Assembly (NCBI GenBank): GCA_949710005.1
Contig: OX453286.1
Coordinates: 1,140,001-1,204,000, forward strand
Source of the DNA: Ricordea florida
Taxonomy: Eukaryota > Cnidaria > Anthozoa > Corallimorpharia > Ricordeidae
DNA length: 64,000 nucleotides
Direction: 5' to 3'
Shown piece after piece: positions 9,963-64,000 of the stretch. The first letter of the stretch is position 1. Every line of letters starts with the position of its first letter. The notes beneath the pieces were generated by a model, which saw only the letters and a program-made list of their open reading frames with translations, had not been told where the DNA came from and did no database searches. A program made the position numbers and the translations under genes.

Positions 9963-10023
9963 TACGCGTCATCACAGTGGTCAAAATGTCCACAAGAAAT
10001 TTTGACCACTGTGATGACGCGTA
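9963..10023. repeat. Perfect 25-bp inverted repeat with 11-nt loop
   Basis: Arms are 9963-9987 and 9999-10023. The left arm begins TACGCGTCATCACAGTGGTC and the right arm is its exact complement. The loop is 9988-9998. It could be a foldback element remnant or a structured 3' end; it is not followed by a T-run. Confidence 0.9.
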
Positions 10024-12591: not shown

Positions 12592-12630
12592 TGTAAATTG
12601 CACAGCTATTTATTCCACGTAAATGTTGAA

Positions 12631-12699
12631 ATGATGGAGCACGTTTCAAACGCGCGACAGTGGATTTACCTATTTCTGCTGATGTTCTTGGCACAGCAG
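12631..12699 (+). CDS. Putative first coding exon: signal peptide of an unidentified secreted or membrane protein
   Basis: The frame reads MMEHVSNARQWIYLFLLMFL then AQQ (23 codons) and stops at a good donor, GTATGT, at 12700-12705 in phase 0. The second ATG (12634) has A at -3 and G at +4, a strong initiation context. The peptide has a short polar start with one Arg, an 11-residue hydrophobic core and an Ala-Gln-Gln end, a typical signal peptide. The same frame is open upstream to an acceptor-like site ending at 12591, with an in-frame TAA at 12559-12561, so a 5'UTR intron is possible. The rest of the gene lies beyond the satellite, to the right of the window. The protein cannot be named from this exon, and the exon call is inference from codons plus donor. 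Confidence 0.5.
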
Positions 12700-12705
12700 G
12701 TATGT
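12700..12705 (+). promoter_or_regulatory. Splice donor GTATGT next to the satellite start
   Basis: CAG/GTATGT follows the signal-peptide frame. The first satellite CAGCTG begins at 12709, so only three bases separate the donor hexamer from the array. Confidence 0.5.
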
Positions 12706-13160
12706 ACCCAGCTGATTATTAACCCATCAAAATGACCATAAAAAAAATCTGATTAATAACCCATCAAAATGACCATAAGAAACAGCTCATTATTAACCCA
12801 TCAAAATGACCATAAAAAACAGCTGATTATTAACCCATCAAAATGACCATAAAAAACAGCTGAGTATTAACCAATCAAAATCACCATAAAAAACAGCTGA
12901 GTATTAACCCATCAAAATGACAATAAAAAACAGCTGATTATTACCCACCAAAATCACCATAAAAAAAAGCTGAGTATTAACCCATCAAAATGACCATAAA
13001 AAACAGCTGAGTATTAACCCATCAAAATGACCATAAAAACAGCTGATTATTAACCCATCAAAATGACCATAAGAAAAAGCTAATTATTAACCGATCAAAA
13101 TGACAGTAAAAAACAGGTGAGTATTAACCCATCAAAATGACCATAAAAAACAGCTGATTG

Positions 13161-15006
13161 TTAACCCGTCAAAATGACCATAATAAACAGCTGATTATTA
13201 ACCCATCAAAATGACCATAAAAAACAGCTGATTAATAACCCATCAAAATGACCATAAAAAACAGCTGATTATTAACCCATCAAAATGACCATGAAAAACA
13301 GCTGATTATTAACCCATCATAATGACAATAAAAAACAACTGATTATTAACCCATCAAAATGACCATAAAAAACACCTGAGTATTAAGCCATCAAAATGAC
13401 CATAAAAACAGCTCATTATTAACCCATCAAAATGACCATAAAAAACAGCTGATTATTAACCAATCAAAATGACCATAAAAAACAGCTAATTATTACCCCA
13501 TCAAAATGACCATAAAAAACAGCTCATTATTAACCCATCAAAATGACAATAAGAAACGGCTGATTATTAACCTATCAAAATGACCATAAGAAACAGCTAA
13601 GTATTAACCCATCAAAATGACCATAAAAAACAGCTGACTATTAACCCATCAAAATGACCATAAAAAACAGCTGATTATTAACCCATCAAAATGACCATGA
13701 AAAAAAACTGATTATTAACCCATCAAAATGACCATAAAAAACAGCTGATTATTAACCCATCATAATAAGCATAAAAAAAAGCTGACTATTAACCCATCAA
13801 AATGACCATAAAAAACAACTGATTATTAACCCATCAAAATGACCATAGAAAACAGCTGAGTATTAACCCATCAAAATGACCATAAAAAACAGCTGATTAT
13901 TAACCCATCAAAATGACCATAAAAAACAGCTGAGTATTAACCCATCAAAATGACCATAAAAACAGCTGATTATTAACCCATCAAAATGACCATAAGAAAC
14001 AGCTAATTATTAACCGATCAAAATGACAGTAAAAAACAGGTGAGTATTAACCCATCAAAATGACCATAAAAAACAGCTGATTGTTAACCCGTCAAAATGA
14101 CCATAAGAAACAGCTGATTATTAACCCATCAAAATGACCATAAAAAACAGCTGATTATTAACCCATCAAAATGACCATAAAAAACAGCTGATTATTAACC
14201 CATCAAAATGACCATGAAAAACAGCTGATTATTAACCCATCATAATGACCATAAAAAACAACTGATTATTAACCCATCAAAATGACCATAAAAAACAGCT
14301 GAGTATTAAGCCATCAAAATGACCATAAAAAACAGCTCATTATTAACCAATCAAAATCACCATAAAAAACAGCTGAGTATCAACCCATCAAAATGACCAT
14401 AAAAAACAGCTGATTATTACCCCATCAAAATGACCATAAAAAACAGCTGATTATTAACCCATCAAAATGACCATAAGAAACGAATGATTATTAACCCATC
14501 AAAATGACCATAAGAAACAGCTAAGTATTAACCCATCAAAATGACCATAAAAAAAAGCTGACTATGAACCCATCAAAATGACCATAAAAAACAGCTTATT
14601 ATTAACCCATCAAAATGACCATGAAAAAAAACTGATTATTAACCCATTAAAATGACCATAAAAAACAGCTGATTATTAACCCATCATAATGAGCATAAAA
14701 AAAAGCTGACTATTAACCCATCAAAATGACCATAAAAAACAACTGATTATTAACCCATCAAAATGACCATAGAAAACAGCTGAGTATTAACCCATCAAAA
14801 TGACCATAAAAAACAGCTGATTATTAACCCATCAAAATCACCATAAAAAACAGCTGAGTATTAACCCATCAAAATGACCATAAAAAACAGCTGATTATTA
14901 ACCCATCAAAATCACCATAAAAAACAGCTGAGTATTAACCCATCAAAATGACCATAAAAACAGCTGATTATTAACCAATCAAAATGACCATAAAAAACAG
15001 CTGATT
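13161..15006 (+). repeat. Higher-order repeat, about 923 bp, two tandem copies
   Basis: Marker variants recur at a constant offset: TTAACCCGTC at 13161 and 14084 (923), TATTAAGCC at 13381 and 14303 (922), CATAAT before AAGC/GAGC at 13761 and 14685 (924). That is about 25 units of 37 bp per copy. Confidence 0.85.
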
Positions 15007-15700
15007 ATTACCCCATCAAAATGACCATAAAAAACAGCTGATTATTAACCCATCAAAATGACCATAAGAAACGGATGATTATTAACCCATCAAAGTTACC
15101 ATAAAAAACAGCTAAATATTAACCCACCAAAATCACCATAAAAAACAGCTGATTATTAACCGATAAAAATGACCATAGAAAACAGCTGACTATTAACCCA
15201 CCAAAATCACCATTAAAAACAGCTTATTATTAACCCATCAAAATGACCATAAAAAACAGCTGATTAATAACCCATCAAAATGACCTCAAGAAACAGCTGA
15301 CTATTAACCCATCAAAATGACTATAAGAAACATCTGACTATTAACCCATCAAAATGACCATAAGAAACAGCTGATTATTAACCAATCAAAATCACCATAA
15401 AAAACAGCTGATTGTTAACCCGTCAAAATGACCATAAGAAACAGCTGATTATTAACCCATCAAAATGACCATAAAAAACAGCTGATTATTAACCCATCAA
15501 AATGACCATAAAACAGCTGATTATTAACCCATCAAAATGACCATGAAAAACAGCTGATTATTAACCCATCATAATGACCATAAAAAACAACTGATTATTA
15601 ACCCATCAAAATGACCATAAAAAACAGCTGAGTATTAAGCCATCAAAATGACCATAAAAAACAGCTCATTATTAACCCATCAAAATCACCATAAAAAACA

Positions 15701-18700
15701 GCTGAGTATCAACCCATCAAAATGACCATAAAAAACAGCTGATTATTAACCAATCAAAATGACCATAAAAAACAGCTGATTATTGCCCCATCAAAATGAC
15801 CATAAAAAACAGCTGATTATTAATCCATCAAAATGACCATAAGAAACGGCTGATTATTAACCCATCAAAATGACCATAAGAAACAGCTAAGTATTAACCC
15901 ATCAAAATGACCATAAAAAACAGCTGACTATGAACCCATCAAAATGACCATAAAAAACAGCTTATTATTAACCCATCAAAATGACCATGAAAAAAAACTG
16001 ATTATTAACAAATCAAAATCACCATAAAAAACAGCTGATTATTAACCCATCATAATGAGCATAAAAAAAAGCTGACTATTAACCCATCAAAATGACCATA
16101 AAAAACAACTGATTATTAACCCATCAAAATGACCATAGAAAACAGCTGAGTATTAACCCATCAAAATAACCATAACAAACAGCTGATTATTACCCCATCA
16201 AAATGAACATAAAAAACAGCTGAGTATTAACCCATCAAAATGACCATAAAAACAGCTGATTATTAACCAATCAAAATGACCATAAAAAACAGCTGATTAT
16301 TACCCCATCAAAATGACCATAAAAAACAGCTGATTATTAACCCATCAAAATGACCATAAGAAACAGCTGATTATTAACTCATCAAAGTTACCATAAAAAA
16401 CAGCTAAATATTAACCCACCAAAATCACCATAAAAAACAGCTGATTATTAACCGATAAAAATGACCATAGAAAACAGCTGACTATTAACCCACCAAAATC
16501 ACCATTAAAAACAGCTGATTATTAACCCATCAAAATGACCATAAAAAACAGCTGATTAATAACCCATCAAAATGACCTCAAGAAACAGCTGACTATTAAC
16601 CCATCAAAATGACTATAAGAAACATTTGACTGTTAACCCATCAAAATGACCATAAAAAACAGCTGATTATTAACCAATCAAAATGACGATAAAAAACAGC
16701 TGATTATTACCCCATCAAAATGACAATAAAAAAAAGCTGATTATTAACCCATCAAAATGACCATAAGAAACGGCTGATTATTAACCCATCAAAATGACCA
16801 TAAGAAACAGCTAAGTATTAACCCATCAAAATGACCATAAAAAACAGCTGACTATTAACCCATCAAAATGACCATAAAAAACAGCTTATTATTAACCCAT
16901 CAAAATGACCATAAAAAACAGCTGATTATTAACCCATCATAATGAGCATAAAAAAAGCTGACTATTAACCCATCAAAATGACCATAAAAAACAACTGATT
17001 ATTAACCCATCAAAATGACCATAGAAAAAAGGTGAGTATTAACCCATCAAAATGACCATAAAAAACAGCTGATTGTTAACCCGTCAAAATGACCATAAGA
17101 AACAGCTGATTATTAACCCATCAAAATGACCATAAAAAACAGCTGATTATTAACCCATCAAAATGACCATAAAAAACAGCTGATTATTAACCCATCAAAA
17201 TGACCATGAAAAACAGCTGATTATTAACCCATCATAATGACCATAAAAAACAACTGATTATTAACCCATCAAAATGACCATAAAAAACAGCTGAGTATTA
17301 AGCCATCAAAATGACCATAAAAAACAGCTGATTATTAACCAATCAAAATCACCATAAAAAACAGCTGAGTATCAACCCATCAAAATGACCATAAAAAACA
17401 GCTGATTATTACCCCATCAAAATGACCATAAAAAACAGCTGATTATTAACCCATCAAAATGACCATAAGAAACGGCTGATTATTAACCCATCAAAATGAC
17501 CATAAGAAACAGCTAAGTATTAACCCATCAAAATGACCATAAAAAAAAGCTGACTATGAACCCATCAAAATGACCATAAAAAACAGCTTATTATTAACCC
17601 ATCAAAATGACCATGAAAAAAAACTGATTATTAACCCATCAAAATGACCATAAAAAACAGCTGATTATTAACCCCTCATAATAAGCATAAAAAAAGCTTA
17701 CTATTAACCCATCAAAATGACCATAAAAAACAACTGATTATTAACCCATCAAAATGACCATACAAAACAGCTGAGTATTAACCCATCAAAATGACCATAA
17801 AAAACAGCTGATTATTAACCCATCAAAATCACCATAAAAAACAGCTGAGTATTAACCCATCAAAATGACCATAAAAAACAGCTGATGATTAACCCATCAA
17901 AATCACCATAAAAAACAGCTGAGTATTAACCCATCAAAATGACGATAAAAACAGCTTATTATTAACCAATCAAAATGACCATAAAAAACAGCTGATTATT
18001 ACCCCATCAAAATGACCATAAAAAACAGCTGATTATTAACCCATCAAAATGACCATAAGAAACGGATGATTATTAACCCATCAAAGTTACCATAAAAAAC
18101 AGCTAAATATTAACCCACCAAAATCACCATAAAAAACAGCTGATTATTAACCGATAAAAATGACCATAGAAAACAGCTGACTATTAACCCACCAAAATCA
18201 CCATTAAAAACAGCTCATTATTAACCCATCAAAATGACCATAAAAAACAGCTGATTAATAACCCATCAAAATGACCTCAAGAAACAGCTGACTATTAACC
18301 CATCAAAATGACTATAAGAAACATCTGACTATTAACCCATCAAAATGACCATAAGAAACAGCTGATTATTAACCAATCAAAATGACCATAAAAAACAGCT
18401 GATTATTAACCCATTAAAATGACCTTAAAAAACAGGTGACTATTAACCCATCAAAATGACCATAAAAAAACAGCTGATTATTAACCCATCAAAATTACAA
18501 TAAAAACAGCTGATTATTCAGCCATCAAAATGACCTTAAAAACAGCTGACTATTAACCCATAAAAATGACCATAAGAAACAGCTGAGTATTAACCCATCA
18601 AAATGACCTTTTAAAACAGCTGACTATTAACCCATCAAAATGACCATAAAAAAACAGCTGATTAATAACCCATCAAAATGACCTTAAAAAACAGCTGACT

Positions 18701-21700
18701 ATTAACCCACTAAAATCACCATAAAAAAACCTGATTATTAACCCATTAAAATGACCATAAAAAACAGCTGACTATTAACCCATCAAGATGACCTTAAAAA
18801 ACAGCTGACTATTAACCCATCAAAATAATAAAAAACAACAGTTGATTAATAACCCATCAAAATGACCATGAAAAACAGCTGATTATTAACCCACAAAAAT
18901 CACCATAAAAAACAGCTGATTATTAACCCATCAAAATCACCATAAAGAACAGCTGGTTAATAACCCATCAAAATGACCTCAAGAAAAAGCTGACTATTAA
19001 CCCATCAAAATGACTATAAGAAACATCTGACTATTAACCCATCAAAATGACCATAAGAAACAGCTGATTATTAACCAATCAAAATGACCATAAAAAACAG
19101 CTGAGTATTAAGCCATCAAAATGACCATAAAAAACAGCTCATTATTAACCCATCAAAATCACCATAAAAAACAGCTGAGTATCAACCCATCAAAATGACC
19201 ATAAAAAACAGCTGATTATTAACCAATCAAAATGACCATAAAAAACAGCTGATTATTGCCCCATCAAAATGACCATAAAAAACAGCTGATTATTAATCCA
19301 TCAAAATGACCATAAGAAACGGCTGATTATTAACCCATCAAAATGACCATAAGAAACAGCTAAGTATTAACCCATCAAAATGACCATAAAAAACAGCTGA
19401 CTATGAACCCATCAAAATGACCATAAAAAACAGCTTATTATTAACCCATCAAAATGACCATGAAAAAAAACTGATTATTAACAAATCAAAATCACCATAA
19501 AAAACAGCTGATTATTAACCCATCATAATGAGCATAAAAAAAAGCTGACTATTAACCCATCAAAATGACCATAAAAAACAACTGATTATTAACCCATCAA
19601 AATGACCATAGAAAACAGCTGAGTATTAACCCATCAAAATAACCATAACAAACAGCTGATTATTACCCCATCAAAATGAACATAAAAAACAGCTGAGTAT
19701 TAACCCATCAAAATGACCATAAAAACAGCTGATTATTAACCAATCAAAATGACCATAAAAAACAGCTGATTATTACCCCATCAAAATGACCATAAAAAAC
19801 AGCTGATTATTAACCCATCAAAATGACCATAAGAAACAGCTGATTATTAACTCATCAAAGTTACCATAAAAAACAGCTAAATATTAACCCACCAAAATCA
19901 CCATAAAAAACAGCTGATTATTAACCGATAAAAATGACCATAGAAAACAGCTGACTATTAACCCACCAAAATCACCATTAAAAACAGCTGATTATTAACC
20001 CATCAAAATGACCATAAAAAACAGCTGATTAATAACCCATCAAAATGACCTCAAGAAACAGCTGACTATTAACCCATCAAAATGACTATAAGAAACATTT
20101 GACTGTTAACCCATCAAAATGACCATAAAAAACAGCTGATTATTAACCAATCAAAATGACGATAAAAAACAGCTGATTATTACCCCATCAAAATGACAAT
20201 AAAAAAAAGCTGATTATTAACCCATCAAAATGACCATAAGAAACGGCTGATTATTAACCCATCAAAATGACCATAAGAAACAGCTAAGTATTAACCCATC
20301 AAAATGACCATAAAAAACAGCTGACTATTAACCCATCAAAATGACCATAAAAAACAGCTTATTATTAACCCATCAAAATGACCATAAAAAACAGCTGATT
20401 ATTAACCCATCATAATGAGCATAAAAAAAGCTGACTATTAACCCATCAAAATGACCATAAAAAACAACTGATTATTAACCCATCAAAATGACCATAGAAA
20501 AAAGGTGAGTATTAACCCATCAAAATGACCATAAAAAACAGCTGATTGTTAACCCGTCAAAATGACCATAAGAAACAGCTGATTATTAACCCATCAAAAT
20601 GACCATAAAAAACAGCTGATTATTAACCCATCAAAATGACCATAAAAAACAGCTGATTATTAACCCATCAAAATGACCATGAAAAACAGCTGATTATTAA
20701 CCCATCATAATGACCATAAAAAACAACTGATTATTAACCCATCAAAATGACCATAAAAAACAGCTGAGTATTAAGCCATCAAAATGACCATAAAAAACAG
20801 CTGATTATTAACCAATCAAAATCACCATAAAAAACAGCTGAGTATCAACCCATCAAAATGACCATAAAAAACAGCTGATTATTACCCCATCAAAATGACC
20901 ATAAAAAACAGCTGATTATTAACCCATCAAAATGACCATAAGAAACGGCTGATTATTAACCCATCAAAATGACCATAAGAAACAGCTAAGTATTAACCCA
21001 TCAAAATGACCATAAAAAAAAGCTGACTATGAACCCATCAAAATGACCATAAAAAACAGCTTATTATTAACCCATCAAAATGACCATGAAAAAAAACTGA
21101 TTATTAACCCATCAAAATGACCATAAAAAACAGCTGATTATTAACCCCTCATAATAAGCATAAAAAAAGCTTACTATTAACCCATCAAAATGACCATAAA
21201 AAACAACTGATTATTAACCCATCAAAATGACCATACAAAACAGCTGAGTATTAACCCATCAAAATGACCATAAAAAACAGCTGATTATTAACCCATCAAA
21301 ATCACCATAAAAAACAGCTGAGTATTAACCCATCAAAATGACCATAAAAAACAGCTGATGATTAACCCATCAAAATCACCATAAAAAACAGCTGAGTATT
21401 AACCCATCAAAATGACGATAAAAACAGCTTATTATTAACCAATCAAAATGACCATAAAAAACAGCTGATTATTACCCCATCAAAATGACCATAAAAAACA
21501 GCTGATTATTAACCCATCAAAATGACCATAAGAAACGGATGATTATTAACCCATCAAAGTTACCATAAAAAACAGCTAAATATTAACCCACCAAAATCAC
21601 CATAAAAAACAGCTGATTATTAACCGATAAAAATGACCATAGAAAACAGCTGACTATTAACCCACCAAAATCACCATTAAAAACAGCTGATTATTAACCC

Positions 21701-36000: not shown

Positions 36001-36420
36001 GACCATAAAAAACAGCTTATTATTAACCCATCAAAATGACCATGAAAAAAAACTGATTATTAACCAATCAAAATCACCATAAAAAACAGCTGATTATTAA
36101 CCCATCATAATGAGCATAAAAAAAAGCTGACTATTAACCCATCAAAATGACCATAAAAAACAACTGATTATTAACCCATCAAAATGACCATAGAAAACAG
36201 CTGAGTATTAACCCATCAAAATAACCATAAAAAACAGCTGATTATTACCCCATCAAAATGAACATAAAAACAGCTGAGTATTAACCCATCAAAATGACCA
36301 TAAAAACAGCTGATTATTAACCAATCAAAATGACCATAAAAAACAGCTGATTATTACCCCATCAAAATGACCATAAAAAACAGCTGATTATTAACCCATC
36401 AAAATGACCATAAGAAACAG

Positions 36421-39400
36421 CTGATTATTAACTCATCAAAGTTACCATAAAAAACAGCTAAATATTAACCCACCAAAATCACCATAAAAAACAGCTGATT
36501 ATTAACCGATAAAAATGACCATAGAAAACAGCTGACTATTAACCCACCAAAATCACCATTAAAAACAGCTGATTATTAACCCATCAAAATGACCATAAAA
36601 AAATGCTGATTAATAACCCATCAAAATGACCTCAAGAAACAGCTGACTATTAACCCATCAAAATGACTATAAGAAACATTTGACTGTTAACCCATCAAAA
36701 TGACCATAAGAAACAGCTGATTATTAACCAATCAAAATGACGATAAAAAACAGCTGATTATTAACCCATCAAAATGACAATAAAAAACAGCTGATTATTA
36801 ACCCATCAAAATGACCATAAGAAACGGCTGATTATTAACCCATCAAAATGACCATAAGAAACAGCTAAGTATTAACCCATCAAAATGACCATAAAAAACA
36901 GCTGACTATTAACCCATCAAAATGACCATAAAAAACAGCTTATTATTAACCCATCAAAATGACCATAAAAAACAGCTGATTATTAACCCATCATAATGAG
37001 CATAAAAAAAGCTGACTATTAACCCATCAAAATGACCATAAAAAACAACTGATTATTAACCCATCAAAATGACCATAGAAAACAGCTGAGTATTAACCCA
37101 TCAAAATGACCATAAAAAACAGCTGATTATTAACCCATCGAAATGACCATAAAAAACAGCTGAGTATTAACCCATCAAAATGACCATAAAAACAGCTGAT
37201 TATTAACCCATCAAAATAACCATAAGAAACAGCTGATTATTAACCCATTAAAATGACCATAAAAAAACAGCTGATTATTAACCCATCAAAATGACCATAA
37301 GAAACAGCTGATTATTAACCGATCAAAATTACCATAAAAAAATGCTGACTAGTAACCCATCAAAATGACCTTTATAAACAGCTGAGTATTAACCCATCAA
37401 AATGACCATAAGAAACAGCTGATTATTAACCAATCAAAATGACCATAAAAAACAGCTGATTATTACCCACTCAAAATGACCATAAAAAACAGCTGATTAT
37501 TAACCCATCAAAATGACCATAAGAAACAGCTGATTATTAACCCACGAAAATCACCATAAAAAACAGCTGATTACTACCCCATAAAAATGACCATAAAGAC
37601 ATCTGATTATTCACCCATCAAAATGACCTTAAAAAACAGCTGATTATTAACCCATTAAAATGACCTTAAAAAACAGGTGACTATTAACCAATCAAAATGA
37701 CCATAAAAAAACAGCTGATTATTAACCCATCAAAATGACCGTAAAAACAGCTGATTATTCAGCCATCAAAATGACCTTAAAAACAGCTGACTATTAACCC
37801 ATCAAAATGACCATAAAAAACAGCTGAGTATTAACCCATCAAAATGACCATAAGAAACAGCTGATTATTAACCCACCAAAATCACCATAAAAAACAGCTG
37901 ATTATTACCCCATAAAAATGACCATAAAGACATCTGATTATTCACCCATCAAAATGACCTTAAAAAACATCTGATTATTAACCCATTAAAATGACCTTAA
38001 AAAACAGGTGACTATTAACCCATCAAAATGACCATAAAAAAACAGCTGATTATTAACCCATCAAAATTACCATAAAAACAGCTGATTATTCAGCCATCAA
38101 AATGACCTTAAAAACAGCTGACTATTAACCCATAAAAATGACCATAAGAAACAGCTGAGTATTAACCCATCAAAATGACCTTTTAAAACAGCTGACTATT
38201 AACCCATCAAAATGACCATAAAAAAACAGCTGATTAATAACCCATCAAAATGACCTTAAAAAACAGCTGACTATTAACCCACTAAAATCACCATAAAAAA
38301 ACCTGATTATTAACCCATTAAAATGACCATAAAAAACAGCTGACTATTAACCCATCAAGATGACCTTAAAAAACAGCTGACTATTAACCCATCAAAATAA
38401 TAAAAAACAACAGTTGATTAATAACCCATCAAAATGACCATGAAAAACAGCTGATTATTAACCCACAAAAATCACCATAAAAAACAGCTGATTATTAACC
38501 CATCAAAATCACCATAAAGAACAGCTGGTTAATAACCCATGAAAATCACCTTAAAAAATAGCTGATTATTAACCCATTAAGATCACCATAAAAAACAGCT
38601 GATTATTAACCCATCAAAATGACCCTAAAAAAAAGCTGATTAATAACCCATCAAAATGACCACAAGAAACAGCTGATTATTAACCCACCAAAATCACCAT
38701 TAAAAACAGCTGATTATTAACCCATAAAATGACCATAAAAAACAGCTCATTAATAACCCATAAAAATGACTTCAAAAAACGGCCGACTATGAACCCATTA
38801 AAATGACAATAAAAAACAGCTGATTATTAATCCATCAAAATGACCATAAAAAACAGCTGACTATTAACCCATCAAATTAAGAAAAAACAGAACAGCTGAT
38901 TATTAACCCATCAAAGTTACCATAAAAAACAGCTAAATATTAACCCACCAAAATCACCATAAAAAACAACTGATTATTAACCGATAAAAATGACCATAGA
39001 AAACAGCTGACTATTAACCCACCAAAATCACCATTAAAAACAGCTGATTATTAACCCATCAAAATGACCATCAAAAAAAAACTGATTAATAACCCATCAA
39101 AATGACCTCAAGAAACAGCTGACTATTAACCCATCAAAATGACTATAAGAAACATCTGACTATTAACCCATCAAAATGACCATAAGAAACAACTGAGTAT
39201 TAACCCATCAAAATGACCATAAAAAACAGCTGATTATTACCCCATCAAAATGACCATAAAAAACAGCTGATTATTTTCCCATCAAAATGACCTTAAAAAA
39301 CAGCTGATTATTAACCCACCAAAATCACCATAAAAACAGAGCTGATTATTAACCCATCAAAATGACCATAAAAAGCAGCTGATAATTAACCCATTAAAAT

Positions 39401-42400: not shown

Positions 42401-45400
42401 AAAACAGCTGATTATTAACCCATCATAATGAGCATAAAAAAAGCTGACTATTAACCCATCAAAATGACCATAAAAAACAACTGATTATTAACCCATCAAA
42501 ATGACCATAGAAAACAGCTGAGTATTAACCCATCAAAATGACCATAAAAAACAGCTGATTATTAACCCATCGAAATGACCATAAAAAACAGCTGAGTATT
42601 AACCCATCAAAATGACCATAAAAACAGCTGATTATTAACCCATCAAAATAACCATAAGAAACAGCTGATTATTAACCCATTAAAATGACCATAAAAAAAC
42701 AGCTGATTATTAACCCATCAAAATGACCATAAGAAACAGCTGATTATTAACCGATCAAAATTACCATAAAAAAATGCTGACTAGTAACCCATCAAAATGA
42801 CCTTTATAAACAGCTGAGTATTAACCCATCAAAATGACCATAAGAAACAGCTGATTATTAACCAATCAAAATGACCATAAAAAACAGCTGATTATTACCC
42901 ACTCAAAATGACCATAAAAAACAGCTGATTATTAACCCATCAAAATGACCATAAGAAACAGCTGATTATTAACCCACGAAAATCACCATAAAAAACAGCT
43001 GATTACTACCCCATAAAAATGACCATAAAGACATCTGATTATTCACCCATCAAAATGACCTTAAAAAACAGCTGATTATTAACCCATTAAAATGACCTTA
43101 AAAAACAGGTGACTATTAACCAATCAAAATGACCATAAAAAAACAGCTGATTATTAACCCATCAAAATGACCGTAAAAACAGCTGATTATTCAGCCATCA
43201 AAATGACCTTAAAAACAGCTGACTATTAACCCATCAAAATGACCATAAAAAACAGCTGAGTATTAACCCATCAAAATGACCATAAGAAACAGCTGATTAT
43301 TAACCCACCAAAATCACCATAAAAAACAGCTGATTATTACCCCATAAAAATGACCATAAAGACATCTGATTATTCACCCATCAAAATGACCTTAAAAAAC
43401 ATCTGATTATTAACCCATTAAAATGACCTTAAAAAACAGGTGACTATTAACCCATCAAAATGACCATAAAAAAACAGCTGATTATTAACCCATCAAAATT
43501 ACCATAAAAACAGCTGATTATTCAGCCATCAAAATGACCTTAAAAACAGCTGACTATTAACCCATAAAAATGACCATAAGAAACAGCTGAGTATTAACCC
43601 ATCAAAATGACCTTTTAAAACAGCTGACTATTAACCCATCAAAATGACCATAAAAAAACAGCTGATTAATAACCCATCAAAATGACCTTAAAAAACAGCT
43701 GACTATTAACCCACTAAAATCACCATAAAAAAACCTGATTATTAACCCATTAAAATGACCATAAAAAACAGCTGACTATTAACCCATCAAGATGACCTTA
43801 AAAAACAGCTGACTATTAACCCATCAAAATAATAAAAAACAACAGTTGATTAATAACCCATCAAAATGACCATGAAAAACAGCTGATTATTAACCCACAA
43901 AAATCACCATAAAAAACAGCTGATTATTAACCCATCAAAATCACCATAAAGAACAGCTGGTTAATAACCCATGAAAATCACCTTAAAAAATAGCTGATTA
44001 TTAACCCATTAAGATCACCATAAAAAACAGCTGATTATTAACCCATCAAAATGACCCTAAAAAAAAGCTGATTAATAACCCATCAAAATGACCACAAGAA
44101 ACAGCTGATTATTAACCCACCAAAATCACCATTAAAAACAGCTGATTATTAACCCATAAAATGACCATAAAAAACAGCTCATTAATAACCCATAAAAATG
44201 ACTTCAAAAAACGGCCGACTATGAACCCATTAAAATGACAATAAAAAACAGCTGATTATTAATCCATCAAAATGACCATAAAAAACAGCTGACTATTAAC
44301 CCATCAAATTAAGAAAAAACAGAACAGCTGATTATTAACCCATCAAAGTTACCATAAAAAACAGCTAAATATTAACCCACCAAAATCACCATAAAAAACA
44401 GCTGATTATTAACCGATAAAAATGACCATAGAAAACAGCTGACTATTAACCCACCAAAATCACCATTAAAAACAGCTGATTATTAACCCATCAAAATGAC
44501 CATCAAAAAAAAACTGATTAATAACCCATCAAAATGACCTCAAGAAACAGCTGACTATTAACCCATCAAAATGACTATAAGAAACATCTGACTATTAACC
44601 CATCAAAATGACCATAAGAAACAACTGAGTATTAACCCATCAAAATGACCATAAAAAACAGCTGATTATTACCCCATCAAAATGACCATAAAAAACAGCT
44701 GATTATTTTCCCATCAAAATGACCTTAAAAAACAGCTGATTATTAACCCACCAAAATCACCATAAGAACAGAGCTGATTATTAACCCATCAAAATGACCA
44801 TAAAAAGCAGCTGATAATTAACCCATTAAAATAAAAATAAAAAAGCTGATTAATAACCCATCAAAAGGACCTGAAGAAACAGCTGACTATTAACCCATCA
44901 AAATGACCATAAGAAACAGATAATCATTAACCCATCAAAATGACCTTAAAAAACAGCTGATTATTAACCCATTAAGATCACCATAAAAAACAGCTGATTA
45001 ATAAGCCATCAAAATGACCATAACAAGCAGCTGATTATTAACCTACCAAAATCACCATTAAAAACAGCTGATTATTAACCCATCAAAATGACCATAAAAA
45101 CCGCTGATTATTAACCCATCAAAATGACTTTAAAAAACGGCTGACTATTAACCCATTAAAATGACAATAAAAAACAGCTGATTATTAACCCATCAAAATG
45201 ACCATAGAAAACAGCTGACCATTAACCCACCAAAATATCCATTAAAAACAGCTGATTATTAACCCATCAAAATGACCATAAATAACAGCTGATTAATAAC
45301 CCATCAAAATGACCTCAAGAAACAGCTGACTATTAACCCATCAAAATGACTATAAGAAACATGACTATTAACCCATCAAAATGACCATAAGAAACAGCTG

Positions 45401-47190: not shown

Positions 47191-50100
47191 AAAATATCCA
47201 TTAAAAACAGCTGATTATTAACCCATCAAAATGACCATAAAAAACAGCTGATTATTTACCAATCAAAATGACCTTAAAGAACAGCTGATTATTAACCCAC
47301 AACAATGACCATAAAAAACGGCTGATTATTAACCCATTAAAGTGACCATAAAAAACATCTGATTAATAACCGATCAAAATGACTATATAAAACAGCTGAT
47401 TATTAACCCATCAAAATGACCATAAAAAACAGCTCATTAATAACCCATCAAAATAACCATAAAAAATAGGTGACTATTAACCCACCAAAACCATCATAAA
47501 AAATAGCTAATTATTAACCCACAAAAATGACCATAAAAAACATCTGACTATTAACCCATCAAAATGACCTTAAAAAACAGCTGACTATTAACCCATCAAA
47601 ATGACCTTAAAAACCGCTTACTATTAACCCATCAAAATGACCATAACAAATCAGCTAATTAATAACCCATCAAAATGACCATAAAAAACAGCTGATTATT
47701 AACCCACCAAAATCACCATAAAAAAAGCTGATTATTAAACCATTAAAATGACCATAAAAAACAGCTGACTATTAACCCATCAAAATCACCTTAAAAAACA
47801 GCTGAATATTAACACATCAAAATGACCAAAAAAGAACAGTTGATTTATAAGCCATCAAAATGACCATAAAAAAAGAGCTCATTATTAACCCACCAAAATC
47901 ACCATAAAAAACAGCTGACTATTAACCCATCAAAATGACCTCAAAAAACAGCTGACTATTAACCCATCAAAATGACCATAAAAAACAGCTGATTTTTAAC
48001 CCATAAAAATGACCTTAAAAAACAGCTAATTATTAACCCACAAAAAATCACCATAAAAAACAGCTGATTATTAACCCATAAAAATAAACATAAAAAAGGT
48101 GACTATTAACCCATCCAAATGACCTTAAGAAACAGTTGAGTATTAACCCATCAAAATGACCATAAGAAACAGCTGATTATTAACCCATTAAAATGACCAT
48201 GAAAAAAAGCTGATTAATAACCCATCGAAATGACCACAAGAAAAAGCTGATTATTAACCCACCAAAATCACCATAAAAAACAGCTGATTATTCAGCCATC
48301 AAAATGACCTTAAAAAGCAGCTGACTATTAACCCATCAAAATGACCATAAGAAACAGCTGAGTATTAACCCATCAAAATGACCTTAAAAACAGCTGACTA
48401 TTAACCCATCAAAATGACCAAAAAAGAACAGCTGATTAATAACCCATCAAAATGACAATAAAAAACAGCTGATTTTTAACCCATTAAAATCCCCATAAAA
48501 AAACGGCTGATTATTAACCCACCAAAATAACCATGAAAAATCGCTAATTATTAACCCATCAAAATCACCATAAAAAACACCTGATTAATAACCCATTAAA
48601 ATGACCTCAAGAAACAGCTGACTTTTAACCCATCAAAATGACCTTAAAAAACAGCTGACTATTAACGCATTAAAATGACCATAAAAAAACAGCTGATTAA
48701 TAACCCATCAAAATGACGATAAAAACCAGCTAACTATTAACCCACCAAAAACACCATAAAAAAAGCTGATTATTAACCCATTAAAATGACCATAAAAAAC
48801 AGCTGAATCTTAACCCATCAAAATGACCATAAAAAACAGGTGATTATTAACCCATCAAAATGACCATAAAAAACAGTTGATTATTTAGCCATAGAAATGA
48901 CCTTAAAAAACAACTGATTATTAACCCACCAAAATCACTAAAAAACAGCTGATTATTAACCCATCAAAATGACCATAAAAAACAGCTGATTAATAACCCA
49001 TCAAAATGACCATAAAAAACAGCTGATTATTAACCCATCAAAATGACCATAAAAAACAGCTGATTAATAACCCATCAAAATGACCATAAAAAACAACTGA
49101 TTATTAACCCATCAAAATCACCATAAAAAACAGCTGAATATTAACCCATCAAAATGACCTTAAAAAACAGCTAATTATTAACCCACAAAAAATCACTATA
49201 AAAAACAGCTGATTATTAACCCATAAAAATAAACATAAAAAAGGTGACTATTAACCCATCCAAATGACCTGAAGAAACAGTTGAGTATTAACCCATCAAA
49301 ATGACCATAAGAAACAGCTGATTATTAACCCATTAAATTGACCATGAAAAAAAGCTGATTAATAACCCATCGAAATGACCACAAGAAAAAGCTGATTATT
49401 AACCCACCAAAATCACCATAAAAAACAGCTGATTATTCAGCCATCAAAATGACCTTAAAAAGCAGCTGACTATTAACCCATCAAAATGACCATAAAAAAC
49501 AGCTCATTATTAACCCATCAAAATCACCATAAAAAACAGCTGAGTATTAACCCATCAAAATGACCATAAAAAAAAGCTAATTATAAACCAATCAAAATGA
49601 CCATAAAAAACAGCTGATTATTAACCCATCATAATGACCATAAAAAAACAGCTGATTATTAACCCATCAAAATGACCACAAGAAACAGCTGATTATTTAC
49701 CCATCAAAATGACCATAAAAAACAGCTGATTATTAACCCATCATAATAACCATAAAAAACAGCTAATTATTAACCCATCAAAATGACCATAAAAAACAGC
49801 TGATTATTAACCCATCAAAATGACCATGAAAAAAAACTGATTATTAACCCATCAAAATGACCATAAAAAACAGCTGATTATTAACCCATCAAAATGACCA
49901 TAAGAAACAGCTGATTATTAACCCATCAAGATGACCATAAAAAAACAGCTGATTATTAACCCATCAAAATAACCATAAAAAAATGCTAACTAGTAACCCA
50001 TCAAAATGACCTTAAAAAACAGCTGACTATTAACCCATTAAAATGACCATAAAAAACAGCCTATTATTCACCCATCAAAATGACCATAAGAAACAGCTGA

Positions 50101-53100
50101 TTATTAACCCATCAAAATGACGATAAAAAACAGCTGATTTTTTTCCCAGCAAAATGACCATAAAAAACACCTAATTATTAAACCATTAAAATGACCATAA
50201 AAAAAGCTGATTAATAACCCATCAAAAGGACCTCAAGAAACAGCTGACTATTAACCCATCAAAATGACCATAAGAAACAGATAATCATTAACCCATCAAA
50301 ATGACCTTAAAAAACAGCTGATTATTAACCCATTAAGATCACCATAAAAAACAGCTGATTAATAACCCATCAAAATGAACATAACAAGCAGCTGATTATT
50401 AACCCACCAAAATAACAATTAAAAACAGCTGATTATTAACCCATCAAAATGACCATAAAAACCGCTGATTAATAACCCATCAAAATGACTTTAAAAAACG
50501 GCTGACTATTAACCCATTAAAATGACAATAAAAAACAGCTGATTATTAACCCATCATAATGAGGATAAAAAAAAGCTGACTATTAACCCATCTAAATGAC
50601 CATAAAAAACAACTGATTATTAACCCATCAAAATGACCATAAAAAACAGCTCATTATTAACCCATCAAAATCACCATAAAAAACAGCTGAGTATTAACCC
50701 ATCAAAATGACCATAAAAAAAAGCTAATTATAAACCAATCAAAATGACCATAAAAAACAGCTGATTATTAACCCATCATAATGACCATAAAAAAACAGCT
50801 GATTATTAACCCATCAAAATGACCACAAGAAACAGCTGATTATTTACCCATCAAAATGACCATAAAAAACAGCTGATTATTAACCCATCATAATAACCAT
50901 AAAAAACAGCTAATTATTAACCCATCAAAATGACCATAAAAAACAGCTGATTATTAACCCATCAAAATGACCATGAAAAAAAACTGATTATTAACCCATC
51001 AAAATGACTATAAAAAACAGCTGATTATTAACCCATCAAAATGACCATAAGAAACAGCTGATTATTAACCCATCAAGATGACCATAAAAAAACAGCTGAT
51101 TATTAACCCATCAAAATAACCATAAAAAAATGCTAACTAGTAACCCATCAAAATGACCTTAAAAAACCGCTGACTATTAACCCATTAAAATGACCATAAG
51201 AAACAGCTGATTATTAACCCATCAAAATGACGATAAAAAACAGCTGATTGTTTTCCCAGCAAAATGACCATATAAAACAGCTGATTATTAACCCATCATA
51301 ATGAGGATAAAAAAAAGCTGACTATTAACCCATCTAAATGACCATAAAAAACAACTGATTATTAACCCATCAAAATGACCATAAAAAACAGCTCATTATT
51401 AACCCATCAAAATCACCATAAAAAAAGCTGATTAATAACCCATCAAAAGGACCTCAAGAAACAGCTGACTATTAACCCATCAAAATGACCATAAGAAACA
51501 GATAATCATTAACCCATCAAAATGACCTTAAAAAACAGCTGATTATTAACCCATTAAGATCACCATAAAAAACAGCTGATTAATAACCCATCAAAATGAA
51601 CATAACAAGCAGCTGATTATTAACCCACCAAAAAAACAATTAAAAACAGCTGATTATTAACCCATCAAAATGACCATAAAAACCGCTGATTAATAACCCA
51701 TCAAAATGACTTTAAAAAACGGCTGACTATTAACCCATTAAAATGACAATAAAAAACAGCTGATTATTAACCCATCAAAATGACCATAGAAAACAGCTGA
51801 CCATTAACCCACCAAAATATCCATTAAAAACAGCTGATTATTAACCCATCAAAATGACCATAAAAAACAGCTGATTATTTACCAATCAAAATGACCTTAA
51901 AGAACAGCTGATTATTAACCCACAACAATGACCATAAAAAACGGCTGATTATTAACCCATTAAAGTGACCATAAAAAACATCTGATTAATAACCGATCAA
52001 AATGACTATATAAAACAGCTGATTATTAACCCATCAAAATGACCATAAAAAACAGCTCATTAATAACCCATCAAAATAACCATAAAAAATAGGTGACTAT
52101 TAACCCACCAAAACCATCATAAAAAATAGCTAATTATTAACCCACAAAAATGACCATAAAAAACATCTGACTATTAACCCATCAAAATGACCTTAAAAAA
52201 CAGCTGACTATTAACCCATCAAAATGACCTTAAAAACCGCTTACTATTAACCCATCAAAATGACCATAACAAATCAGCTAATTAATAACCCATCAAAATG
52301 ACCATAAAAAACAGCTGATTATTAACCCACCAAAATCACCATAAAAAAAGCTGATTATTAAACCATTAAAATGACCATAAAAAACAGCTGACTATTAACC
52401 CATCAAAATCACCTTAAAAAAGAGCTGAATATTAACACATCAAAATGACCAAAAAAGAACAGTTGATTTATAAGCCATCAAAATGACCATAAAAAAAGAG
52501 CTCATTATTAACCCACCAAAATCACCATAAAAAACAGCTGACTATTAACCCATCAAAATGACCTCAAAAAACAGCTGACTATTAACCCATCAAAATGACC
52601 ATAAAAAACAGCTGATTTTTAACCCATAAAAATGACCTTAAAAAACAGCTAATTATTAACCCACAAAAAATCACCATAAAAAACAGCTGATTATTAACCC
52701 ATAAAAATAAACATAAAAAAGGTGACTATTAACCCATCCAAATGACCTTAAGAAACAGTTGAGTATTAACCCATCAAAATGACCATAAGAAACAGCTGAT
52801 TATTAACCCATTAAAATGACCATGAAAAAAAGCTGATTAATAACCCATCGAAATGACCACAAGAAAAAGCTGATTATTAACCCACCAAAATCACCATAAA
52901 AAACAGCTGATTATTCAGCCATCAAAATGACCTTAAAAAGCAGCTGACTATTAACCCATCAAAATGACCATAAGAAACAGCTGAGTATTAACCCATCAAA
53001 ATGACCTTAAAAACAGCTGACTATTAACCCATCAAAATGACCAAAAAAGAACAGCTGATTAATAACCCATCAAAATGACAATAAAAAACAGCTGATTTTT

Positions 53101-55163
53101 AACCCATTAAAATCCCCATAAAAAAACGGCTGATTATTAACCCACCAAAATAACCATGAAAAATCGCTAATTATTAACCCATCAAAATCACCATAAAAAA
53201 CACCTGATTAATAACCCATTAAAATGACCTCAAGAAACAGCTGACTTTTAACCCATCAAAATGACCTTAAAAAACAGCTGACTATTAACGCATTAAAATG
53301 ACCATAAAAAAACAGCTGATTAATAACCCATCAAAATGACGATAAAAACCAGCTAACTATTAACCCACCAAAAACACCATAAAAAAAGCTGATTATTAAC
53401 CCATTAAAATGACCATAAAAAACAGCTGAATCTTAACCCATCAAAATGACCATAAAAAACAGGTGATTATTAACCCATCAAAATGACCATAAAAAACAGT
53501 TGATTATTTAGCCATAGAAATGACCTTAAAAAACAACTGATTATTAACCCACCAAAATCACTAAAAAACAGCTGATTATTAACCCATCAAAATGACCATA
53601 AAAAACAGCTGATTAATAACCCATCAAAATGACCATAAAAAACAGCTGATTATTAACCCATCAAAATGACCATAAAAAACAGCTGATTAATAACCCATCA
53701 AAATGACCATAAAAAACAACTGATTATTAACCCATCAAAATCACCATAAAAAACAGCTGAATATTAACCCATCAAAATGACCTTAAAAAACAGCTAATTA
53801 TTAACCCACAAAAAATCACTATAAAAAACAGCTGATTATTAACCCATAAAAATAAACATAAAAAAGGTGACTATTAACCCATCCAAATGACCTGAAGAAA
53901 CAGTTGAGTATTAACCCATCAAAATGACCATAAGAAACAGCTGATTATTAACCCATTAAATTGACCATGAAAAAAAGCTGATTAATAACCCATCGAAATG
54001 ACCACAAGAAAAAGCTGATTATTAACCCACCAAAATCACCATAAAAAACAGCTGATTATTCAGCCATCAAAATGACCTTAAAAAGCAGCTGACTATTAAC
54101 CCATCAAAATGACCATAAAAAACAGCTCATTATTAACCCATCAAAATCACCATAAAAAACAGCTGAGTATTAACCCATCAAAATGACCATAAAAAAAAGC
54201 TAATTATAAACCAATCAAAATGACCATAAAAAACAGCTGATTATTAACCCATCATAATGACCATAAAAAAACAGCTGATTATTAACCCATCAAAATGACC
54301 ACAAGAAACAGCTGATTATTTACCCATCAAAATGACCATAAAAAACAGCTGATTATTAACCCATCATAATAACCATAAAAAACAGCTAATTATTAACCCA
54401 TCAAAATGACCATAAAAAACAGCTGATTATTAACCCATCAAAATGACCATGAAAAAAAACTGATTATTAACCCATCAAAATGACCATAAAAAACAGCTGA
54501 TTATTAACCCATCAAAATGACCATAAGAAACAGCTGATTATTAACCCATCAAGATGACCATAAAAAAACAGCTGATTATTAACCCATCAAAATAACCATA
54601 AAAAAATGCTAACTAGTAACCCATCAAAATGACCTTAAAAAACAGCTGACTATTAACCCATTAAAATGACCATAAAAAACAGCCTATTATTCACCCATCA
54701 AAATGACCATAAGAAACAGCTGATTATTAACCCACCAAAATGACCATAAAAAACAGCTGATTGTTTTCCCAGCAAAATGACCATAAAAAACACCTAATTA
54801 TTAAACCATTAAAATGACCATAAAAAAAGCTGATTAATAACCCATCAAAAGGACCTCAAGAAACAGCTGACTATTAACCCATCAAAATGACCATAAGAAA
54901 CAGATAATCATTAACCCATCAAAATGACCTTAAAAAACAGCTGATTATTAACCCATTAAGATCACCATAAAAAACAGCTGATTAATAACCCATCAAAATG
55001 AACATAACAAGCAGCTGATTATTAACCCACCAAAATAACAATTAAAAACAGCTGATTATTAACCCATCAAAATGACCATAAAAACCGCTGATTAATAACC
55101 CATCAAAATGACTTTAAAAAACGGCTGACTATTAACCCATTAAAATGACAATAAAAAACAGCT
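45915..55163 (+). repeat. Higher-order repeat, 4623 bp, two tandem copies
   Basis: Offset 4623: CATAATGAG 45932/50555, CATCATAATA 46263/50886, GATTGTTTTC 46623/51246, ATTATTTACC 47251/51874, AAACCGCTTA 47611/52234 and GCTAATTATA 49576/54199. Copies diverge before 45.91 kb and after 55.16 kb, so the junction is near 50.54 kb. It overlaps the right end of the 5432-bp repeat, showing layered duplication. Confidence 0.92.
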
Positions 55164-59700: not shown

Positions 59701-60100
59701 AAAAACAGCTGATTATTAACCCATCATAATAACCATAAAAAACAGCTAATTATTAACCCATCAAAATGACCATAAAAAACAGCTGATTATTAACCCATCA
59801 AAATGACCATGAAAAAAAACTGATTATTAACCCATCAAAATGACCATAAAAAACAGCTGATTATTAACCCATCAAAATGACCATAAGAAACAGCTGATTA
59901 TTAACCCATCAAGATGACCATAAAAAAACAGCTGATTATTAACCCATCAAAATAACCATAAAAAAATGCTAACTAGTAACCCATCAAAATGACCTTAAAA
60001 AACCGCTGACTATTAACCCATTAAAATGACCATAAGAAACAGCTGATTATTAACCCATCAAAATGACGATAAAAAACAGCTGATTGTTTTCCCAGCAAAA
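56770..60100 (+). repeat. Displaced copy of 43.3-46.6 kb (offset 13,459 bp)
   Basis: AATTAAGAAAA at 44307 reappears at 57766, AACATGAC at 45358 at 58817, and CATCATAATA at 46263 at 59722: the same offset of 13,459 each time. The copy starts near 56.77 kb and loses similarity near 60.1 kb. Confidence 0.85.
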
Positions 60101-63100
60101 TGACCATAAAAAACACCTAATTATTAAACCATTAAAATGACCATAAAAAAAGCTGATTAATAACCCATCAAAAGGACCTCAAGAAACAGCTGACTATTAA
60201 CCCATCAAAATGACCATAAGAAACAGATAATCATTAACCCATCAAAATGACCTTAAAAAACAGCTGATTATTAACCCATTAAGATCACCATAAAAAACAG
60301 CTGATTAATAACCCATCAAAATGAACATAACAAGCAGCTGATTATTAACCCACCAAAAAAACAATTAAAAACAGCTGATTATTAACCCATCAAAATGACC
60401 ATAAAAACCGCTTATTAATAACCCATCAAAATGACTTTAAAAAACGGCTGACTATTAACCCATTAAAATGACAATAAAAAACAGCTGATTATTAACCCAT
60501 CAAAATGACCATAGAAAACAGCTGACCATTAACCCACCAAAATATCCATTAAAAACAGCTGATTATTAACCCATCAAAATGACCATAAAAAACAGCTGAT
60601 TATTTACCAATCAAAATGACCTTAAAGAACAGCTGATTATTAACCCACAACAATGACCATAAAAAACGGCTGATTATTAACCCATTAAAGTGACCATAAA
60701 AAACATCTGATTAATAACCGATCAAAATGACTATATAAAACAGCTGATTATTAACCCATCAAAATGACCATAAAAAACAGCTCATTAATAACCCATCAAA
60801 ATAACCATAAAAAATAGGTGACTATTAACCCACCAAAACCATCATAAAAAATAGCTAATTATTAACCCACAAAAATGACCATAAAAAACATCTGACTATT
60901 AACCCATCAAAATGACCTTAAAAAACAGCTGACTATTAACCCATCAAAATGACCTTAAAAACCGCTTACTATTAACCCATCAAAATGACCATAACAAATC
61001 AGCTAATTAATAACCCATCAAAATGACCATAAAAAACAGCTGATTATTAACCCACCAAAATCACCATAAAAAAAGCTGATTATTAAACCATTAAAATGAC
61101 CATAAAAAACAGCTGACTATTAACCCATCAAAATCACCTTAAAAAACAGCTGAATATTAACACATCAAAATGACCAAAAAAGAACAGTTGATTTATAAGC
61201 CATCAAAATGACCATAAAAAAAGAGCTCATTATTAACCCACCAAAATCACCATAAAAAACAGCTGACTATTAACCCATCAAAATGACCTCAAAAAACAGC
61301 TGACTATTAACCCATCAAAATGACCATAAAAAACAGCTGATTTTTAACCCATAAAAATGACCTTAAAAAACAGCTAATTATTAACCCACAAAAAATCACC
61401 ATAAAAAACAGCTGATTATTAACCCATAAAAATAAACATAAAAAAGGTGACTATTAACCCATCCAAATGACCTTAAGAAACAGTTGAGTATTAACCCATC
61501 AAAATGACCATAAGAAACAGCTGATTATTAACCCATTAAAATGACCATGAAAAAAAGCTGATTAATAACCCATCGAAATGACCACAAGAAAAAGCTGATT
61601 ATTAACCCACCAAAATCACCATAAAAAACAGCTGATTATTCAGCCATCAAAATGACCTTAAAAAGCAGCTGACTATTAACCCATCAAAATGACCATAAGA
61701 AACAGCTGAGTATTAACCCATCAAAATGACCTTAAAAACAGCTGACTATTAACCCATCAAAATGACCAAAAAAGAACAGCTGATTAATAACCCATCAAAA
61801 TGACAATAAAAAACAGCTGATTTTTAACCCATTAAAATCCCCATAAAAAAACGGCTGATTATTAACCCACCAAAATAACCATGAAAAATCGCTAATTATT
61901 AACCCATCAAAATCACCATAAAAAACACCTGATTAATAACCCATTAAAATGACCTCAAGAAACAGCTGACTTTTAACCCATCAAAATGACCTTAAAAAAC
62001 AGCTGACTATTAACGCATTAAAATGACCATAAAAAAACAGCTGATTAATAACCCATCAAAATGACGATAAAAACCAGCTAACTATTAACCCACCAAAAAC
62101 ACCATAAAAAAAGCTGATTATTAACCCATTAAAATGACCATAAAAAACAGCTGAATCTTAACCCATCAAAATGACCATAAAAAACAGGTGATTATTAACC
62201 CATCAAAATGACCATAAAAAACAGTTGATTATTTAGCCATAGAAATGACCTTAAAAAACAACTGATTATTAACCCACCAAAATCACTAAAAAACAGCTGA
62301 TTATTAACCCATCAAAATGACCATAAAAAACAGCTGATTAATAACCCATCAAAATGACCATAAAAAACAACTGATTATTAACCCATCAAAATCACCATAA
62401 AAAACAGCTGACTATTAACCCATCAAAATGACCTTAAAAAACAGCTTACTATTAACCCATCAAAATGACCATAAAAAAAGCTGATTATTAACCCATCAAA
62501 ATGACCATAACAAACAGCTGAATATTAACCCATCAAAATGACCTTAAAAAACAGCTAATTATTAACCCACAAAAAATCACTATAAAAAACAGCTGATTAT
62601 TAACCCATAAAAATAAACATAAAAAAGGTGACTATTAACCCATCCAAATGACCTGAAGAAACAGTTGAGTATTAACCCATCAAAATGACCATAAGAAACA
62701 GCTGATTATTAACCCATTAAATTGACCATGAAAAAAAGCTGATTAATAACCCATCGAAATGACCACAAGAAAAAGCTGATTATTAACCCACCAAAATCAC
62801 CATAAAAAACAGCTGATTATTCAGCCATCAAAATGACCTTAAAAAGCAGCTGACTATTAACCCATCAAAATGACCATAAAAAACAGCTCATTATTAACCC
62901 ATCAAAATCACCATAAAAAACAGCTGAGTATTAACCCATCAAAATGACCATAAAAAAAAGCTAATTATAAACCAATCAAAATGACCATAAAAAACAGCTG
63001 ATTATTAACCCATCATAATGACCATAAAAAAACAGCTGATTATTAACCCATCAAAATGACCACAAGAAACAGCTGATTATTTACCCATCAAAATGACCAT

Positions 63101-64000
63101 AAAAAACAGCTGATTATTAACCCATCATAATAACCATAAAAAACAGCTAATTATTAACCCATCAAAATGACCATAAAAAACAGCTGATTATTAACCCATC
63201 AAAATGACCATGAAAAAAAACTGATTATTAACCCATCAAAATGACCATAAAAAACAGCTGATTATTAACCCATCAAAATGACCATAAGAAACAGCTGATT
63301 ATTAACCCATCAAGATGACCATAAAAAAACAGCTGATTATTAACCCATCAAAATAACCATAAAAAAATGCTAACTAGTAACCCATCAAAATGACCTTAAA
63401 AAACAGCTGACTATTAACCCATTAAAATGACCATAAAAAACAGCCTATTATTCACCCATCAAAATGACCATAAGAAACAGCTGATTATTAACCCATCAAA
63501 ATGACGATAAAAAACAGCTGATTGTTTTCCCAGCAAAATGACCATAAAAAACACCTAATTATTAAACCATTAAAATGACCATAAAAAAAGCTGATTAATA
63601 ACCCATCAAAAGGACCTCAAGAAACAGCTGACTATTAACCCATCAAAATGACCATAAGAAACAGATAATCATTAACCCATCAAAATGACCTTAAAAAACA
63701 GCTGATTATTAACCCATTAAGATCACCATAAAAAACAGCTGATTAATAACCCATCAAAATGAACATAACAAGCAGCTGATTATTAACCCACCAAAAAAAC
63801 AATTAAAAACAGCTGATTATTAACCCATCAAAATGACCATAAAAACCGCTGATTAATAACCCATCAAAATGACTTTAAAAAACGGCTGACTATTAACCCA
63901 TTAAAATGACAATAAAAAACAGCTGATTATTAACCCATCAAAATGACCATAAAAAACAGCTGATTATTTACCAATCAAAATGACCTTAAAGAACAGCTGA
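60100..64000 (+). repeat. Further copy of the 50.2-55.3 kb type block, cut by the window edge
   Basis: ATTATTTACC at 51874 and 55276 recurs at 60599 and 63963, and AAACCGCTTA at 52234 recurs at 60959 (offset 8725 for the first marker pair as well). The block continues past the end of the window. Confidence 0.8.

What the first reader, a model, noticed from the sequence alone, without database searches (positions are those of the whole stretch)
12709..64000. At least 51 kb of one uninterrupted 37-bp satellite
Roughly 1,390 direct copies with no gene, transposon or orientation switch. The unit matches no satellite I can name. Arrays this long with such a short unit are usually centromeric, subtelomeric or heterochromatic, yet this one begins only about 4 kb past the 3' end of a conserved housekeeping-type gene.
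Basis: partly seen in the sequence, partly recalled or inferred. Interest (0 to 1): 0.8.

Follow-up and report, generated by a model that had tools for sequence, protein, structure and literature searches.

The report
Large young array of dispersed minisatellite
A coral- or anemone-like genome carries a real 59-kb block of about 1,590 copies of a 37-letter repeat, one of many blocks of the same repeat family in that genome, and the block begins where a copied fragment of a gene-like front end stops; its size and setting are unusual, but it is probably ordinary selfish repeat growth.

Summary
The array is real. It starts at window 12709, runs past the window edge and ends at C15:1,211,526 (L009:7526): 58.8 kb, about 1,592 head-to-tail units, no gap, interruption or orientation switch. 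It is not unique. The genome holds 1,632 forward and 1,428 reverse near-matches (up to 3 mismatches; reversed-pattern control 0); 1,116 of the forward ones lie here. Related, often decayed arrays sit on C5, C13 and C15, older relatives on C9 and C10. Median best identity is 1.000 within this array, against 0.860-0.914 to 12 other held pieces (its size favours it). It grew by copying kb-scale blocks (exact copies up to 2,611 bp). Its left edge coincides, within about 3 bp, with the end of a 732-bp, 95%-identical copy of C15:796,763-797,510, which includes a putative signal-peptide exon and splice donor; no array follows the other copy in the 1.5 kb read. Best reading: recent local expansion of an old dispersed minisatellite, joined to a transposed gene fragment; function probably none. 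The genome server stopped answering, so the right flank, parent gene and unplaced reverse copies remain untested.

The parts
12709..64000 (+). 37-bp minisatellite array (consensus CAGCTGATTATTAACCCATCAAAATGACCATAAAAAA); continues to L009:7526 = C15:1,211,526
11977..12708 (+). 732-bp segment, about 95% identical to C15:796,763-797,510; ends at the left edge of the array (within about 3 bp)
12631..12699 (+). putative copied exon 1 (MMEHVSNARQWIYLFLLMFLAQQ, signal-peptide-like by eye) followed at 12700 by a splice-donor-like GTATGT
   Evidence: sequence read; aligned with the other copy; the exon call itself is inference, no predictor was run
15605..18215 (+). 2,611-bp block, exact copy of 19078-21688 (lag 3,473 bp): example of kb-scale block duplication
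47800..50111 (+). 2,312-bp block, exact copy of 52423-54734 (lag 4,623 bp)
36765..38968 (+). 2,204-bp block, exact copy of 42197-44400 (lag 5,432 bp)

Best explanation
It is a young, locally amplified array of an old dispersed minisatellite family with a unit of about 37 bp and a CAGCTG core. Shown: the same subfamily occurs at other loci on three contigs, and older, more diverged arrays of a related unit occur elsewhere; this array is the most homogeneous of those compared and contains repeated kb-scale block copies, most often spaced 3,473, 4,623 or 5,432 bp apart (about 94, 125 and 147 units); its left edge is sharp and coincides with the end of a copied 732-bp segment that looks like the 5' end of a gene. 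Inferred: a rearrangement (template switching during repair, or reintegration of a circular or ectopic copy) joined the copied fragment to satellite units, and unequal exchange or replication-based copying of kb blocks expanded the array. It most likely has no selected function; passive effects could be late replication, silencing of neighbours, or length polymorphism.
For: Dispersed family: (3,060 matches, control 0). Homogeneity: 222-bp tiles have median best identity 1.000 inside this array (176 of 176 tiles) but 0.860-0.914 to the 12 other held array pieces. Block copying: exact repeats of 2,611, 2,312, 2,204 and 1,956 bp at lags 3,473, 4,623, 5,432 and 13,348; of 52 tiles of 1.11 kb, 35 have a non-overlapping copy at 99% or more and 44 at 95% or more. 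Sharp edge at a duplication end; the 1.5 kb that follows the other copy finds no match right of the array (L009:7526-10000 compared).
Against: Only one edge could be placed at a duplication end; the genome-wide right-flank search did not complete. The other copy's downstream could not be read, so that it is the source and an intact gene is inferred. The array could be older than the copied fragment and have received it at its edge. This array is 58.8 kb and the other pieces at most 9.9 kb, so the within-array identity is favoured by size; 6 of the 12 other pieces, mostly short ones, are not more alike inside than to their best other piece. Mean identity to the unit falls from 0.948 at the left to 0.917 at the right, which a single expansion does not explain. 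No population, read-depth or outgroup data.
Confidence: 0.7

Rival explanations
1. The array is the internal repeat of a transposable element (Helitron-like or TIR element) that carried it here.
For: Satellite arrays that are parts of Helitrons are described in molluscs (PMC5139131, abstract and outline read). Another array of this family (C13, 7.357-7.367 Mb) is bracketed by TIR element pieces meeting it at TTAA.
Against: The immediate flanks of this array match none of the other array flanks that I compared, apart from short matches of 30-38 bases about 2.2 kb left of the array; the left flank has two places in the genome search. The unit itself contains TTAA, so TTAA elements can simply insert into it.
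Confidence: 0.08
2. It is a centromeric or subtelomeric satellite.
For: Size of the array, A+T richness (GC about 0.31), the C15 loci seen lie in the outer parts of that contig (1.15-5.64 and 23.46-24.02 of 27.09 Mb).
Against: Genes lie on both sides (ITFG1; lectin-like and collagen-like ORFs downstream, recognised by eye); several loci on one contig in both orientations. The lists are capped, so absence from other contigs is not proven, and contig ends were not read.
Confidence: 0.07
3. It is the enormous first intron of a working gene whose exon 1 is the signal-peptide-like exon at 12631-12699.
For: Open frame with a donor-like GTATGT starting 9 bp before the array.
Against: The exon is a copy of, or copied to, another locus, differing from it by Q to H, K to N and an altered donor. 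By eye the array strand has no pyrimidine tract before an AG at its right end. A downstream partner exon was not searched for systematically, so this is not excluded.
Confidence: 0.1
4. Assembly artefact: the true copy number is far smaller.
For: Long near-identical blocks are hard to assemble; PMC6868369 (listing and abstract start seen) says tandem repeats lead to assembly errors.
Against: No N; blocks carry private substitutions; longest exact repeat 2.6 kb, below usual long-read length (recalled).
Confidence: 0.1

Closest known systems
Euchromatic dispersed satellite of the beetle Tribolium (TCAST), PMC3411249 and PMC5844308 (search listing and abstract starts seen)
   Same: Satellite units dispersed in gene-bearing DNA
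   Different: TCAST is described as the major pericentromeric satellite of all chromosomes; no such block was looked for or seen here, and one single array here is 59 kb
Mollusc satellite arrays with abrupt junctions, PMC5139131 (abstract and outline read)
   Same: Abrupt transition from satellite to other DNA
   Different: One of the two groups there consists of arrays in Helitrons; no Helitron evidence was found here, and the left flank here is a copied segment that looks like a gene's 5' end
Porites 188-nt intergenic satellite, PMC10236652 (passages read)
   Same: Tandem satellite in intergenic DNA of a coral
   Different: 188-nt unit with a palindromic telomeric sequence; this unit is 37 bp and holds only a single telomere-like TAACCC hexamer, which may be chance

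Membership tests
Minisatellite / satellite DNA | Head-to-tail tandem copies of a short unit over a long stretch | tested here: met
Minisatellite / satellite DNA | Concerted evolution: copies within a locus more alike than between loci | tested here: met
   met for this array (1.000 against 0.860-0.914; size favours it) and for 6 of 12 other pieces; the other 6 pieces, mostly short, are no more alike inside than to their best other piece
Centromeric satellite | A dominant array on every chromosome, CENP-A binding | tested here: inconclusive
   exact units listed only on C5, C13 and C15, several loci on C15, but the listing is capped (omits exact copies seen); CENP-A not testable
Higher-order-repeat satellite (alpha-like) | Regular higher-order period | tested here: not met
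   block lags are irregular (3,473; 4,395; 4,623; 5,432; 8,200; 13,348 bp)
Helitron- or TIR-carried satellite | Element ends flank the array, shared among copies | tested here: inconclusive
   no immediate flank shared with the other array flanks compared, left flank at two places only; genome-wide right-flank search unanswered
Structured RNA / retrozyme-type repeat | Match to an RNA family, or compensatory changes in a fold | tested here: not met
   no Rfam match at the gathering score in the window; no clear covariation of dyad pairs in 264 distinct gapless monomers (the largest excess is pair 11-33, 225 paired against 222.4 with sd 1.5 in shuffles), although one 148-base stretch folds better than shuffles (z -3.26)

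The most novel reading that the evidence does not exclude
The copied 5' end is a working promoter that fires into the array, so a captured promoter and first exon turn a 59-kb satellite into a long one-strand transcription unit (for example a small-RNA source or a silencing centre) that could feed back on the dispersed family.
Probability: 0.08. Interest if true: 0.6.

Novelty: new member of a known kind. Interest (0 to 1): 0.32.

Why it matters
It gives a case, in an animal group for which my searches found few satellite papers, in which the edge of a large young satellite array can be laid against a copy of the same flank without array. That makes two questions testable: how satellite arrays are seeded in gene-bearing DNA, and whether a captured promoter makes them transcribed.

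Tried and rejected
Rfam scan of the window at gathering scores: 0 matches. DNA fold of four units: z -3.26, but dyad pairs show no clear covariation over 264 distinct gapless monomers (of 317 distinct; 53 with gaps left out), so I do not claim a selected hairpin. A 26-base piece of the unit in viral contigs: 0. Downstream ORF L009:7743-8639: no Pfam match at 0.1; its part L009:7845-8639: no PDB match at 0.1. Window frames 1025-1261, 2380-2619 and 8786-9142 gave no Pfam hit; 4131-4421 only a weak sub-threshold one. A 13-base match to a satellite variant (GAAACAGCTGATT) in the other copy of the flank, absent from the window copy where 9 bases are missing, was judged coincidence and not pursued.

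Full report
WHAT WAS CHECKED. Tandem Repeats Finder places a 37-bp array at window 12709-64000 with 1388.2 copies. The window is C15:1,140,001-1,204,000 of a 537.8-Mb genome in 48 contigs. Reading on, the array ends at L009:7526 (C15:1,211,526), which gives 58,818 bp. A wrap-around alignment splits it into 1,592 monomers: 1,332 of 37 bp, 124 of 36, 100 of 38, 30 of 35, 4 of 39 and 2 of 34; 317 distinct types. There is no N, no insertion and no reverse near-match in it. Composition is flat: GC 0.30-0.31, GC skew about -0.42 and AT skew about +0.385 from 14 kb to the window end.

IT IS ONE OF A FAMILY. Up to 3 mismatches, the genome has 1,632 forward and 1,428 reverse copies of the unit, and none of the backward-read control. 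This array holds 1,116 of the forward copies; 13 other loci that I counted hold 279 forward and 295 reverse, so about 237 forward and 1,133 reverse copies lie outside the counted loci. Loci seen are C5 27.44 and 28.37-28.39 Mb, C13 7.357-7.367 Mb, and C15 2.80, 3.48-3.50, 5.64, 23.46 and 24.02 Mb; the listings are capped, so there may be more. A hand-made older unit finds 21 copies: C5 (2, one of them beside the C5 28.39-Mb array), C9 (8), C10 (2) and C13 (9). The C9 array is made of several alternating units of about 36-37 bp that share AAAATCAGCTGATTTT-like junctions (by eye), and one of these units is alignable with the window unit over its whole length (by eye). Several arrays have decayed edges or orientation switches; the window array has neither.

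IT LOOKS YOUNG AND GREW BY BLOCKS. For 222-bp tiles the median best match inside this array is 1.000 (176 tiles), and to the 12 other held array pieces 0.860-0.914. The next most homogeneous piece is C15 23.464 Mb, at 0.975, then C13 at 0.959. Against this: the array is nearly six times longer than the longest other piece, which helps it find close copies; in 6 of the 12 other pieces the inside value does not exceed the best outside value; and tiles without any alignment of 200 bases dropped out (for example 7 tiles counted in the 3.7-kb C5_28.38 piece). Exact internal repeats reach 2,611 bp (lag 3,473), 2,312 bp (lag 4,623), 2,204 bp (lag 5,432) and 1,956 bp (lag 13,348). Of 52 tiles of 1.11 kb, 35 have a non-overlapping copy at 99% or better and 44 at 95% or better; the worst is 91.4%. 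Lags are irregular, so this is not a regular higher-order repeat. Mean identity to the unit drifts from 0.948 at the left end to 0.917 at the right; I have no explanation for that.

THE LEFT EDGE IS A REARRANGEMENT JOIN. A genome search with window 11700-12708 gives two places: itself, and C15:796,763-797,510 at 95% for window 11977-12708. A second alignment, which runs 3 bases into the array (11977-12711), has 24 mismatches and 16 gapped columns in 751. The segment contains an open frame of 23 codons that looks like a signal-peptide exon, followed by a donor-like site: GTGAGT in the other copy, GTATGT here after a 4-base difference. The other copy goes on with unrelated sequence and no array for the 1.5 kb read, and that sequence finds no match in the 2.5 kb right of the array. 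So the copied segment stops where the array starts. Which came first, whether they arrived together, and even which copy is the source, are not settled; calling the other copy the parent is inference, because its downstream could not be fetched (and later, unanswered).

SURROUNDINGS. Upstream lies ITFG1 (PF23122). Downstream are an ORF without Pfam match at L009:7743-8639, a 544-aa ORF with two sub-threshold Pfam hits, lectin-like and collagen-like ORFs, and two Maverick-like elements (recognised by eye). The genome is probably a hexacoral: its mitochondrial COX1 is split by an intron of about 1.1 kb; that such an intron marks Hexacorallia is recalled.

MECHANISM. Shown: dispersal, homogeneity, block copying, one sharp edge at a duplication end. 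Inferred: a repair or reintegration event made the join, and unequal exchange or copying made the expansion. Not shown: transcription, chromatin state, function. I think no selected function is most likely. A selected fold is not supported: dyad pairs do not clearly covary, although a four-unit stretch folds somewhat better than shuffles. The bold alternative is that the captured 5' end is a promoter firing into the array; nothing here excludes it and nothing here tests it.

COMPARED WITH WHAT IS KNOWN. Euchromatic satellites (PMC3411249, PMC5844308; listing and abstract starts), abrupt satellite junctions in molluscs (PMC5139131; abstract and outline) and an intergenic satellite in Porites (PMC10236652; passages) are the nearest kinds that I saw. 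Four strings of the unit were not found in the held papers, but repeat libraries were not available. I file it as a new member of a known kind.

Noticed in passing
C15 about 1,250,480-1,265,870 and 1,303,690-1,319,150 (L013-L015, L018-L020): Two Maverick/Polinton-like elements: a very long ORF of 1,530 or 1,459 aa, an integrase-like ORF of 325 or 324 aa and an ATPase-like ORF of 214 aa in each (recognised by eye, not scanned). Described only.
   Followed up: no
L030:4096-4919 and L021:8800 to L022 about 2312 (C13 7.356-7.370 Mb): The C13 array is bracketed by pieces of two related TIR elements in the same orientation (97% and 96% over the shared parts), each meeting the array at TTAA; every consensus unit contains TTAA, a possible repeated target.
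   Followed up: partly
L034:1-1900 and L035:3290-3600: The C9 array of the older units is flanked on both sides, in the same orientation, by another minisatellite (TGCAATTGATTGCAATTTTTTTC-like): a satellite nested in a satellite (by eye).
   Followed up: no
L028:9456-10000: The array at C15 2.80 Mb stops abruptly at a helicase-like coding stretch that changes frame (recognised by eye): a second array edge at a gene fragment.
   Followed up: partly
L027 about 7800-9585: A TIR element of about 1.75 kb (ends CATTACAACACAGGCACGC...) sits inside the C15 3.48-Mb array (by eye).
   Followed up: no
L009 about 8636-8770 and 9850-9979: Inverted repeats of 135 columns at 93%, a probable TIR element just downstream of the array.
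   Followed up: no
G000, reverse strand: 1,133 of 1,428 reverse near-matches are outside the loci counted, so further large arrays in reverse orientation are expected, perhaps at C15 23.46-24.02 Mb.
   Followed up: partly
window 12709-64000: Each consensus unit contains TAACCC, a permutation of the animal telomere hexamer (recalled), once and not in tandem; perhaps chance.
   Followed up: no
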